Program-made: the position numbers and the translations under genes
IMG/VR virus record: IMGVR_UViG_3300020022_000005
Location: 1-21,191 of that record
DNA length: 21,191 nt
From: a virus
Direction: 5' to 3' (one strand)
The notes under the pieces: model-generated
The model's database searches: none
What the model was told of the DNA's origin: nothing
What the model saw: the letters and a program-made list of their open reading frames with translations, nothing else
In this document: positions 4,393 through 6,693 of the stretch, one piece after another
How positions within the stretch are numbered: the stretch's first letter is position 1
Layout: every line of letters begins with the position of its first letter

Positions 4393-4917
4393 TCACGGCG
4401 CCACCTCATCAGTGGCCGGCCGGGCGGAGGCCCGACCGGCCACACCGCCGACACCCGAAGAAATGTCGGTGGCCTCTCCCACGATCTTCCCAACGGCACC
4501 AGGCGTATCCAGCGCCTGCCCGTCAACCGAAGGAGAAACTCCATGCCCAGTGAGAATTTCATCGACCCGCTCGACACCGCCCGCGCCGAGCTCGACGCCC
4601 TGACCGTACTTCGAACGCAGGTCCTTGACCAGATCCCGGATGCGGACGGCCATGTCATGAGCGGAGGGGAATTCCTCGAACGCTCGATCGCCCACCTCGA
4701 GCTCGCCATCACCGCCGTCGTCAAGAAGATCGCCGACAACCGGACCTGACCCGGCCAGGATGTAATCGGCCAACACGACCAAATCCCCGACCGACGACGG
4801 CAGAGTCGAGGCAGCGATAAACCCGCGGGCCTCCAGCACCGACCGCGCCACCCGCAACGCCTCAACCCGGGCCCGCTGCGGCTCCGTCAACTCGAACTCG
4901 ACCCCCACAAGTGACAT
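4393..4917 (-). CDS. hypothetical protein after the excisionase-like gene
   Basis: A 174-residue frame. The ATG at 4917 overlaps the stop of the excisionase-like gene in TGATG. The N-terminal 60 residues look like a genuine small actinophage protein: MSLVGVEFELTEPQRARVEA, then RVARSVLEARG and DLVVLADYILAG. Beyond about residue 60 the frame is Gly/Val-rich and lies exactly antisense to a plus-strand gene (4543-4749) that has its own strong ribosome site. Either the gene is really this long, or only its N-terminal part is conserved. Both frames cannot easily be under strong independent selection. No motif for function. Confidence 0.55.
   Translation of the reverse strand: MSLVGVEFELTEPQRARVEALRVARSVLEARGFIAASTLPSSVGDLVVLADYILAGSGPVVGDLLDDGGDGELEVGDRAFEEFPSAHDMAVRIRDLVKDLRSKYGQGVELGAGGVERVDEILTGHGVSPSVDGQALDTPGAVGKIVGEATDISSGVGGVAGRASARPATDEVAP
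4412..4443. repeat. very stable GC hairpin
   Basis: GTGGCCGG (4412-4419) pairs with CCGGCCAC (4436-4443), and CGGGC (4421-4425) with GCCCG (4430-4434). There is a single mismatched pair between the two stems and a GGAG loop. It lies 25 bases beyond the plus-strand terminator and inside the 3' end of the minus-strand ORF. It could attenuate transcription of the plus-strand gene at 4543 or stop leftward polymerase with a factor. Confidence 0.5.
4543..4749 (+). CDS. small plus-strand protein of unknown function
   Basis: A 68-residue frame starting at ATG 4543 with an excellent ribosome site, AAGGAG, seven bases upstream. The protein reads MPSENFIDPLDTARAELDAL and continues with TQVLDQIPDADGHVMSGGEF and two helices ending VVKKIADNRT. 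Third codon positions are overwhelmingly G or C, as for the major genes. It is probably a helical, coiled-coil-prone protein. It shares the strand of the repressor and integrase but is separated from them by the divergent gene. It could therefore be a lysogenically expressed orphan. It is completely antisense to the longer ORF 4393-4917, so one of the two assignments may be wrong. Confidence 0.5.
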   Translation: MPSENFIDPLDTARAELDALTVLRTQVLDQIPDADGHVMSGGEFLERSIAHLELAITAVVKKIADNRT

Positions 4918-5150
4918 CAGGACGCCTGAGCATCACCGATGCGCTGCGGTATCTGGCTTCGCTCAACCAGCCGATGGATCGACTCGAGGTCGTAGCGCCA
5001 GTGGCCGCCGGGAGTCCGGAACCCCTCGATCTCGCCGAGAAGAGCGAGGCGCGAAACCGTGCGAGGATCCTTCACGCCGAGAATGCGCGTCGCGTGGCCG
5101 GCTCCAACAAGAACTCTGAGGGTGCCGTCGGTGGCATCGTCTGACTGCAT
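4917..5150 (-). CDS. excisionase / Cro-like winged-helix DNA-binding protein
   Basis: A 77-residue protein from ATG 5150 (MQSDDATDGTLRVLVGAGHA), or 80 residues from ATG 5159. I prefer 5150 because the best promoter predicts a start point within a few bases of it, which would give a leaderless message. The core GHATRILGVKDPRTVSRLAL followed by GFRTPGGHWRYDLESIHRLV is the MerR/excisionase signature: helix-turn-helix plus a wing with R-T-P-G-G-H-x-R-Y. It is transcribed divergently from the repressor. In related phages this position holds the cro-like or recombination-directionality gene that opens the lytic operon, and either role fits. Confidence 0.78.
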   Translation of the reverse strand: MQSDDATDGTLRVLVGAGHATRILGVKDPRTVSRLALLGEIEGFRTPGGHWRYDLESIHRLVERSQIPQRIGDAQAS

Positions 5151-5157
5151 GACGCTC

Positions 5158-5186
5158 AAAGTATGCGATTAACGCATGAACTACAA
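5158..5186 (-). promoter_or_regulatory. putative leftward early promoter
   Basis: TTGTAG (5186-5181) and TACTTT (5163-5158) are spaced by 17 bases on the minus strand. CATACT at 5165-5160 is an alternative -10. Transcription would start just before or at the ATG at 5150. The inverted repeat at 5163-5177 sits in the spacer, where a bound repressor would block polymerase. The -10 match is only moderate. Confidence 0.4.
5163..5177. promoter_or_regulatory. operator-like inverted repeat ATGCG-ATTAA-CGCAT
   Basis: Perfect five-base arms with a five-base A/T spacer in the intergenic region between the divergent excisionase-like and repressor genes. Further copies of the GCGCAT half-site lie nearer the repressor start (5216-5221 and 5243-5248), with GTGCAT at 5225-5230. 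This is the expected place for immunity repressor binding. Confidence 0.5.
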
Positions 5187-5203
5187 GTGGGCAGTTAGAT
5201 CTC

Positions 5204-5209
5204 TATGAT
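5204..5209 (+). promoter_or_regulatory. putative -10 of the repressor promoter
   Basis: TATGAT on the plus strand, 51 bases before the repressor ATG. A weak -35 (CTACAA, 5181-5186) lies 17 bases upstream. The same six bases, read on the other strand, form the -35 of the divergent promoter, so the two promoters would compete. Low confidence. Confidence 0.3.
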
Positions 5210-5259
5210 TCATTCGCGCATTAGGTGCATTTAGAGCATGTCGCGCATACCATGTTGCA

Positions 5260-5673
5260 ATGACCATCGAATCAGCATCGGCGCCGCAGGCGAACTATGA
5301 CGAGTCCGTTGGCACGCGCGTACACATGTTCATGTGGCAGCAGAAGGTCTCGCAAGTCGCGATGGGACAGCTGCTCGGGGTGAATCAGGCGGGCGTCGCC
5401 CGCCGCCTCCGCGGACAAACGTCGTGGTCGGTTGGCGAGCTCATCACCATCGCCGGGAGATTTGAGACCTCTGTGGCGTACTTGATCGGCGAAACTGACG
5501 ATCCCAAGTGCGCCCGGTGGGGCTCGAACCCACGACCCGCGGATTATAAGAGCGCCGGTTCAAAGCCGAACCGCCGCACCTTTCGCGATCGCAAGTTGGG
5601 TCGAAAATCACCCGCCGGGGATCTCGTGCCGATCGATTGGGCACGCTCGACGCGCATCCCGGTGCTCTCGTGA
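5260..5673 (+). CDS. immunity repressor, XRE-type, with attachment core in its 3' end
   Basis: A 137-residue protein from ATG 5260. Residues about 20-80 form a Cro/C1-type helix-turn-helix domain (QQKVSQVAMGQLLGVNQAGV, then a WSVGELITIAGRF helix). From about residue 84 the sequence is the conceptual translation of a tRNA gene read in antisense (CARWGSNPRPADYKSA). The gene therefore carries the phage attachment core at 5509-5550. Residues after about 97 exist only when the phage is not integrated; the tail is basic and ends RIPVLS. In mycobacteriophage BPs, whose repressor is almost the same size, integration removes a degradation-promoting tail and so stabilises the repressor. The layout here implies the same. 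Unlike ssrA-type tags the terminus is not Ala-Ala, so the destabilising signal, if present, differs. Confidence 0.85.
   Translation: MTIESASAPQANYDESVGTRVHMFMWQQKVSQVAMGQLLGVNQAGVARRLRGQTSWSVGELITIAGRFETSVAYLIGETDDPKCARWGSNPRPADYKSAGSKPNRRTFRDRKLGRKSPAGDLVPIDWARSTRIPVLS
5509..5550. other. phage attachment site core (attP), 3' half of a tRNA gene
   Basis: Read on the minus strand this is a CTTATAA anticodon-loop sequence, the 3' strand of an anticodon stem, a variable loop, a perfect T-arm (17 bases, 5517-5533, with GTGGG/CCCAC stem and TTCGAGC loop) and an acceptor 3' strand ending GGGCGCA. The 5' half of the tRNA is absent. Upstream bases would mispair with the two loop-proximal positions of the anticodon stem, so identity with the host gene should end at about 5550. 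The nominal anticodon is TAT, but the loop may be modified phage sequence. This is how tRNA-targeting integrases restore the host tRNA after insertion. Confidence 0.8.
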
Positions 5674-5763
5674 TGACTTCCCGCCCGAAACGTGCTATTG
5701 GCGCCTGGCGCCATTCCGAAGTATCGAGATCCCTATCCGGGGACAAGCGCCGAACCCACGACC
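5525..5763. repeat. repeats flanking the attachment core
   Basis: CGAACCCACGACC occurs at 5525-5537 (inside the tRNA T-arm) and again, direct, at 5751-5763. CGAACCGCCGCAC (5567-5579) has a perfect inverted partner at 5776-5788. CGGTTC and GAACCG form a small hairpin at 5556-5573. All lie between the core and the integrase start, where integrase arm-type sites are expected. The 5751 copy may be a decayed second tRNA fragment. Confidence 0.5.
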
Positions 5764-5829
5764 TTTCAAGTGGAAGTGCGGCGGTTCGCCCCTGTCGGCG
5801 GCACCTGGTACGGCGATAGGTTCCGGAGC

Positions 5830-6693
5830 ATGGATTGGAACAGCGCCCTGACGATCTACGAGGTCCTCGCCGCCTCATTCGGCCACCGACCGCGCACGAT
5901 CGGCAACCGCGTGGAGTGCATGCGACGCATCGCACGGCTGACCGGAGCGAGCGTCGAGGCGATCACGCGACATGACCTCCAGATTGTGCTCGGCCGCGGC
6001 ATCGCCGTCTCTTCGATGCAGCGCGAACGCTCCGACATGCAGGCATTCTTCCGAGTGATGCTCCAGGAAGGCATACGCGCCGACGACCCCTCCGCGGGGC
6101 TGCCGGGGTACCGGGTCGAGAAGGGTACGCCGCGGCCGTTCACCATGGAACAAATCGAGCTCATGCTCGGCACCGGCGCGTATCGACGTACCCGGGTGAT
6201 GATTATGCTCGCCTACCTGCACGGATTGCGTGCGCATGAGGTGGCCAAGGTGCACGGCTCCAACTTCGACCTCACCAGCGGCGAACTCCGGATCGTGGGC
6301 AAAGGCGGCAAAGAGCGGCGTCAGCCGATTCATCCCAGGCTGCTCGAGGAGATCCCGAGCATGCCGGCCGATGATTGGTGGTTTCCGGCGCGACGCGGCG
6401 CGCCCGGGCACATTCACTGGCGCAGCGTCTCCGATCTGATGACACAGGCGAAACGGCGCGCCGGCATCCGCGATCCGAAACTCACCGGCCATTCGCTGCG
6501 CCACTCGTTCGGCACTCAACTGGTCTGGTCTGGCGCTGACCTGCGCACTGCGCAGGTCCTGCTCGGTCATGCATCGCTGGCCACGACCCAGATCTACACG
6601 CTCGTCGCCGAGGGGCAGAAGATGGCGGCGATCGCTGCTCTGCCGGTGCCCGCGATACCGCTCAAGTCCGGTCGGCAACGTCGCGCGGCCTGA
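5830..6693 (+). CDS. int: tyrosine-family integrase
   Basis: A 287-residue protein from ATG 5830 (MDWNSALTIYEVLAASFGHR). The frame is open to GTG 5692, but the upstream part translates tRNA-like and repeat DNA. The N-terminal SAM-like core-binding domain covers about residues 5-90. The catalytic domain shows R134 (HGLRAHE), K158 (GKGGKERR), H221 and R224 (GHSLRHS), H247 (LLGHAS) and nucleophile Y256 (QIYTLV). All the usual catalytic residues are present, so it should be active. There is no N-terminal arm-binding extension of the large type. It follows the repressor on the same strand with the attachment core between them. The C-terminus ends RQRRAA; a terminal Ala-Ala recalls the ssrA-like tag reported on the BPs integrase, but the match is short. 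The gene converges with and overlaps a small minus-strand gene by 32 bases. Confidence 0.93.
   Translation: MDWNSALTIYEVLAASFGHRPRTIGNRVECMRRIARLTGASVEAITRHDLQIVLGRGIAVSSMQRERSDMQAFFRVMLQEGIRADDPSAGLPGYRVEKGTPRPFTMEQIELMLGTGAYRRTRVMIMLAYLHGLRAHEVAKVHGSNFDLTSGELRIVGKGGKERRQPIHPRLLEEIPSMPADDWWFPARRGAPGHIHWRSVSDLMTQAKRRAGIRDPKLTGHSLRHSFGTQLVWSGADLRTAQVLLGHASLATTQIYTLVAEGQKMAAIAALPVPAIPLKSGRQRRAA

What the first reader, a model, noticed from the sequence alone, without database searches (positions are those of the whole stretch)
5260..6693. Attachment core inside the repressor gene: an integration-dependent immunity switch
Seen: an XRE-type repressor ORF of 137 codons whose codons ~84-97 are the antisense of a tRNA 3' half with a perfect T-arm (5517-5533), followed on the same strand by a complete tyrosine integrase, with a divergent excisionase/Cro-like gene upstream. 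Known: in mycobacteriophages BPs, Giles and Brujita, attP lies inside the repressor gene and the viral form of the repressor carries a destabilising C-terminal tail that integration removes. Inference: recombination at 5509-5550 would replace residues after ~97 and so convert an unstable repressor to a stable one, making integration itself the lysogeny decision. The tail here is 40 residues, basic, and ends RIPVLS, not Ala-Ala, so the degradation signal would differ from an ssrA-like tag.
Basis: partly seen in the sequence, partly recalled or inferred. Interest (0 to 1): 0.85.

Follow-up and report, generated by a model that had tools for sequence, protein, structure and literature searches.

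The report
Phage immunity gene completed by integration
This small bacterial virus carries its chromosome-docking site inside the gene for its immunity repressor, so that inserting into a host lysine-tRNA gene should cut the repressor from 137 to 95 residues; the design is already known from related phages, and this is a well-supported new example with an unusual tail.

Summary
The repressor ORF (5260-5673, 137 aa) contains a 41-bp attP core (5506-5546) identical to the antisense 3' half of a tRNA-Lys(UUU) gene in a Microbacteriaceae MAG (39 bp identical in a second actinobacterial MAG). The first host base past the core turns TAT (Tyr96) into TAA, so recombination should give a 95-aa repressor ending ...NPRPAD, leave the tRNA intact, and move the 42-residue viral tail and integrase to the other prophage end.

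Relatives show this outcome in nature. In 24 of the 30 best-scoring repressor homologues from 396 genomes of the same order, the ORF stops inside an antisense tRNA 3' half. In many of these a second core copy lies 13-47 kb away, usually followed by an in-frame tail and an integrase. One tandem prophage carries both the full-length and the truncated repressor.

This is integration-dependent immunity as described for BPs, Brujita, Gordonia CW phages, Bifidobacterium and M. abscessus prophages, including host-supplied stop codons and repressors without -AA. The window's tail ends VLS, not -AA, although its integrase ends -AA. Tail-driven instability is inferred, not shown. A V-x-x-[IL]-D-like tail motif shared by AA and non-AA tails is the one possibly new point.

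The parts
5260..5673 (+). rep: viral-form immunity repressor, 137 aa, HTH domain residues 13-76, then a disordered tail
   Evidence: Pfam BetR/HTH_3 and PHROG 2328; AlphaFold model: helices 13-76, 10-residue block means 89-97 over residues 11-80, no structure and low confidence after ~80
5260..5544 (+). codons 1-95: the part predicted to stay in the lysogen (95-aa prophage repressor, ends ...NPRPAD)
   Evidence: in silico attP x attB recombination with L005 and L006
5506..5546 (.). attP common core, 41 bp, antisense of the 3' half of host tRNA-Lys(UUU)
   Evidence: identical to L005, 39 bp identical to L006
5517..5533 (.). T-arm (stem 5 + loop 7 + stem 5) within the core
   Evidence: read from sequence
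5545..5547 (+). codon 96: TAT (Tyr) in phage, TAA (stop) after integration; base 5547 is the first base outside the core
5545..5670 (+). coding for the 42-residue viral-only tail YKSAGSKPNRRTFRDRKLGRKSPAGDLVPIDWARSTRIPVLS; holds the LVPID motif, no -AA end
5830..6693 (+). int: tyrosine integrase (287 aa from ATG 5830), ends ...RQRRAA
   Evidence: Pfam Phage_integrase 5.1e-28; C-terminus and start
4917..5159 (-). divergent excisionase/Cro-like small HTH protein, 80 aa
   Evidence: Pfam HTH_17 3.2e-6, PHROG 66 8.5e-4
5160..5259 (.). intergenic control region between cro/xis and rep; direct repeat TCGCGCAT at 5214 and 5241 as operator candidate (8-bp repeat, may be chance)
   Evidence: no sigma-70 consensus found

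Best explanation
This is an integration-dependent immunity cassette of a small temperate actinobacterial siphovirus. Shown: attP lies in the repressor gene, and its core equals the antisense 3' half of a tRNA-Lys(UUU). Shown in silico: attP x attB recombination restores the tRNA, places a TAA at codon 96 and leaves a 95-aa repressor with its DNA-binding domain whole, while tail and int go to the other prophage end. Shown in relatives: prophages in exactly that state. Inferred from the experimentally studied phage BPs: the 137-aa viral form is inactivated through its tail (probably by proteolysis), the 95-aa form is stable and represses the divergent early promoter, and the amount of integrase (its -RRAA end looks ssrA-like) sets how often lysogeny follows.
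For: 41-bp identity to host tRNA-Lys, TAT-to-TAA junction and a complete tRNA-Lys called in the hybrid. 24 of 30 best homologues in the order, plus 13 of 20 weaker ones, end inside an antisense tRNA 3' half, although the query alignment excluded the tRNA-coded part. A second core copy 13-47 kb away with an in-frame viral tail, in most cases followed by an integrase. Tandem prophage G462: inner junction encodes the full 147-residue reading frame, outer junction the 116-residue one, matching the reconstruction. The nearest terminase relatives Emperor and SallySpecial also have tRNA-derived attP in their repressors, with -AA tails. Host tmRNA tags end ALAA. HTH domain complete before residue 80.
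Against: No lysogen of this very phage was found; the tRNA-Lys sites in the two matching MAGs showed no adjacent relative of the repressor or were not tested for it (L006's genome was searched with the integrase only). The viral repressor lacks an -AA end. No half-life or immunity data. The contig may be incomplete (IMG/VR 'linear').
Confidence: 0.88

Rival explanations
1. The cassette integrates as described, but the tail does not act as a degradation signal: it blocks the repressor directly (multimerisation, or an intramolecular lock), or both forms repress equally and the overlap is only a compact attP.
For: Tail ends VLS, unlike host ssrA tags ...ALAA. 9 of 12 viral forms in the Micrococcales set lack -AA. 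The tail motif is shared by AA and non-AA tails.
Against: In BPs the long form binds DNA as well as the short one and is inactive because it is degraded (PMC4557955). Non-AA members are presumed to use other degradation signals (PMC8092301).
Confidence: 0.2
2. [quoted passage not shown]
For: In high-GC DNA a 42-codon open tail is not rare by itself.
Against: The same arrangement recurs with at least six different tRNAs (Lys, Met, Thr, Asn, Val, Arg) and unrelated cores. Tails share a motif far above shuffled tails, 9 of 12 against 0.8 expected, and the window tail aligns with that of G388 (P about 0.002).
Confidence: 0.06
3. The window's tail has lost its original -AA tag by mutation or assembly error, so that this copy is a decayed or mis-sequenced member.
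For: G388's tail VTSIDDARSVREPVLTLGDKGEAA continues past the point where the window stops at ...IDWARSTRIPVLS.
Against: Reading the DNA past the stop, no other frame gives a nearby -AA end. Other non-AA members exist in the same set.
Confidence: 0.15

Closest known systems
Integration-dependent immunity of mycobacteriophage BPs (gp33-136/gp33-103; PMC4557955, PMC9262239)
   Same: attP in repressor gene, int downstream on the same strand, divergent cro, tRNA attB, first host base outside the core makes a stop in the third codon position, viral form about 33-42 residues longer
   Different: tRNA-Arg in BPs, tRNA-Lys here; BPs form shown experimentally to be degraded; window tail ends VLS
Gordonia cluster CW and Emperorvirus small phages (PMC5559632; Emperor NC_070995, SallySpecial NC_070996)
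   Same: small genomes, nearest terminase relatives, int-rep-xis order, attP in repressor; CW phages use a tRNA-Lys attB
   Different: repressors end -AA; terminase only 28% identical; contig here is 21 kb
M. abscessus prophages MabC, MabN, MabO, MabH (PMC8092301)
   Same: integration-dependent immunity with viral repressors lacking ssrA-like ends; for MabC, MabN and MabO the stop is made by the first bacterial base
   Different: different host and repressor; integrases of those clusters also lack -AA, whereas the window's ends -AA
Bifidobacterium prophages Bb423phi2 and 689b-1 (PMC6109161)
   Same: small prophages at a tRNA gene, virion repressor reconstructed with an 18-residue extra tail
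   Different: tRNA-Met site, ssrA-like tail

Membership tests
Integration-dependent immunity system (BPs type) | attP common core inside the repressor ORF | tested here: met
   41-bp core 5506-5546 in ORF 5260-5673
[quoted passage not shown]
   tRNA-Lys(UUU) in two actinobacterial MAGs; hybrid junction still called tRNA-Lys by ARAGORN
Integration-dependent immunity system (BPs type) | integration shortens the repressor by a stop at or near the junction | tested here: met
   TAT to TAA, 137 to 95 aa in silico; observed naturally in relatives, not in a lysogen of this phage
Integration-dependent immunity system (BPs type) | tyrosine integrase gene next to and co-oriented with rep, divergent cro/xis | tested here: met
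   no + strand terminator-like site between rep and int
Integration-dependent immunity system (BPs type) | ssrA-like (-AA) C-terminus on the viral repressor | tested here: not met
   ends ...RIPVLS; host tags end ALAA. Typical rather than required: exceptions in PMC8092301 and Walrus
Integration-dependent immunity system (BPs type) | ssrA-like C-terminus on the integrase | tested here: met
   ...SGRQRRAA
Integration-dependent immunity system (BPs type) | long form unstable or inactive, short form stable and conferring immunity | not testable with these tools
   needs half-life and immunity assays
Integration-dependent immunity system (BPs type) | no dedicated recombination directionality factor and no arm-type sites | not tested
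   the divergent 80-aa gene matches an excisionase family only weakly (PHROG 66, 8.5e-4)

The most novel reading that the evidence does not exclude
The removable repressor tail carries a second conserved element, a V-[VIT]-x-[ILV]-[D/R]-like segment (LVPID here), shared across hosts and tRNA sites and present with or without the -AA end. It, rather than the ssrA-like end, would be the ancestral inactivating signal (an adaptor-docking degron or a lock), and the -AA end an addition common in Mycobacterium and Gordonia phages but dispensable in Micrococcales.
Probability: 0.2. Interest if true: 0.55.

Novelty: new member of a known kind. Interest (0 to 1): 0.32.

Why it matters
It adds a phage probably infecting Microbacteriaceae, predicted to use tRNA-Lys(UUU), to a switch in which integration itself makes the immunity protein. 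The survey suggests this switch is common among short repressors of this type in the order. The -AA-free tails and the shared tail motif make a concrete test of what actually inactivates the viral repressor.

Tried and rejected
A viral-contig scan with the repressor found no relative, and with the integrase one fragment that starts at int, so no repressor end is visible. The 14-row repressor alignment was too divergent for a collection scan. BPs and Halo were not retrievable under the accessions tried and Broussard 2013 is not held, so BPs details come from PMC4557955 and PMC9262239. The two attB-bearing MAGs have integrases, but no lysogen of this phage was seen at the tRNA-Lys. Twenty further loci gave one further convincing viral tail, so the motif has no adequate independent test. 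Of the -AA-free reconstructions, G607, G339, G643, G479, G492 and G716 may come from decayed or mis-paired ends and are weak. Chance ORF read-through was considered and rejected as the main reading because of the recurrence in relatives.

Full report
What is there. The window is a 21,191-base IMG/VR viral contig classed as linear. It carries a tailed-phage gene set: terminase, capsid, tape measure and endolysin on the - strand, then on the + strand a repressor (5260-5673) and a tyrosine integrase (best start 5830, end 6693), with a divergent small HTH gene at 4917-5159. The repressor matches BetR/HTH_3 and PHROG 2328; the integrase matches Phage_integrase at 5e-28. The terminase is nearest to small 15-17 kb actinobacteriophages such as Gordonia phages Emperor and SallySpecial (about 28% identity).

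The attachment core. An exact scan of a large genome collection with a 36-base piece of the core found two genomes, a Microbacteriaceae MAG and an Actinomycetales MAG; in both the match is the 3' half of a tRNA-Lys(UUU) gene on the opposite strand. Extending the match gives 41 identical bases (window 5506-5546) with the first and 39 (5508-5546) with the second; ARAGORN still calls a complete tRNA-Lys on the hybrid junction. Phage and host then differ at the very next base, 5547 (T in phage, A in host). In the repressor frame this turns TAT (Tyr96) into TAA. Integration is therefore predicted to give a 95-residue repressor ending NPRPAD, with no host-encoded residues, and to separate it from its 42-residue viral tail and from int. 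The other two frames through the junction do not stop at that place. The AlphaFold model has a confident five-helix DNA-binding domain at residues 13-76 and no structure beyond about residue 80, so truncation at 95 spares the DNA-binding part.

Natural counterparts. Searching 400 genomes of the attB host's family with the repressor found relatives whose reading frame stops inside a tRNA. Searching 396 genomes of the order with an alignment that excluded the tRNA-coded part, 24 of the 30 best homologues end inside the 3' half of an antisense tRNA (Lys, Met, Thr, Asn, Arg; Val in the first search), mostly 37-46 bases from the tRNA's 3' end, that is at the anticodon loop. In a further 20 weaker matches the figure was 13. 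By a rough estimate of my own (about 50 tRNAs, 40 bases each, in 3.5 Mb) a random gene would end there less than once in a thousand times. In a number of these genomes the core recurs 13-47 kb away, usually followed by an in-frame tail and in most cases an integrase; in others no second copy was found in the stretch fetched. One genome (G462) holds two tandem 14.5-kb prophages: the inner junction encodes the complete 147-residue reading frame with tail, the outer junction the 116-residue truncated one, exactly as the reconstruction predicts.

The tail. In 14 of 15 named phages examined the viral repressor ends -AA. In the 12 Micrococcales-set tails, the window included, only 3 do; the window ends VLS, and some of the other eight non-AA tails are uncertain reconstructions. 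Host tmRNA tags in nine genomes all end ALAA, so an -AA end would fit host proteolysis and VLS does not obviously do so. The window's integrase does end -RRAA. AA and non-AA tails share a short hydrophobic-acidic segment (LVPID, VTPID, VTSID, VIFVD, VVDLD, VTQLD, VIPLR): pattern [VL][VITP]x[ILV][DRHYF] in 9 of 12 Micrococcales-set tails (0.8 expected after shuffling) and 5 of 15 named-phage tails (0.4 expected). The pattern was chosen after looking, and relatedness was not corrected for, so this is a lead rather than a result. The window's tail aligns with that of prophage G388 (IDWARSTRIPVLS / IDDARSVREPVLT, P about 0.002 by shuffling, not corrected for the 26 tails compared). Both points argue that the tail is a maintained coding sequence and not accidental read-through.

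How it most likely works. Shown: anatomy, tRNA-Lys identity, junction stop, and relatives in the integrated state. Inferred by analogy with BPs: the long form is removed by proteolysis, the short form is stable and represses the divergent promoter, and integrase level sets lysogeny frequency. In BPs both forms bind DNA alike and the long one is degraded through its C-terminus (PMC4557955); there too the first host base outside the core converts the third position of a codon to a stop (PMC9262239).

Novelty. Integration-dependent immunity is known in mycobacteriophages, Gordonia phages including the small CW group with tRNA-Lys attB (PMC5559632), Bifidobacterium prophages (PMC6109161) and M. 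abscessus prophages, where stops made by the first bacterial base and repressors without -AA are already reported (PMC8092301). The case is a new member of a known kind. What may be new is the breadth in this order and the shared tail segment.

Noticed in passing
L131-L133 (G462): Two tandem 14.5-kb prophages whose repressor copies have the same N-terminal part; the inner copy keeps the viral tail ...DTAVPA, the outer copy is truncated at the tRNA-Lys.
   Followed up: partly
L004:300-1729: Viral contig with the same tRNA-Lys core followed in frame by a tail YGADGSPVVDLFTREPLSA, an integrase, and then its own tRNA-Lys(UUU) gene.
   Followed up: partly
L017:1501-1840: Repressor relative whose 3' end overlaps a tRNA-Thr on the same strand instead of the antisense strand, an inverted arrangement.
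   Followed up: no
L070-L071 (G388, integrase end): Two core copies 112 bp apart at the integrase end of the prophage; only one gives an in-frame -AA tail.
   Followed up: no
window 5750-5768: A second partial copy of the core's T-arm (CGAACCCACGACC) in the gap between rep and int.
   Followed up: no
L003:13580-13625: Another viral contig with a core-like half tRNA (TTTGTAATCCGCGGG...) near its end; no tRNA called.
   Followed up: no
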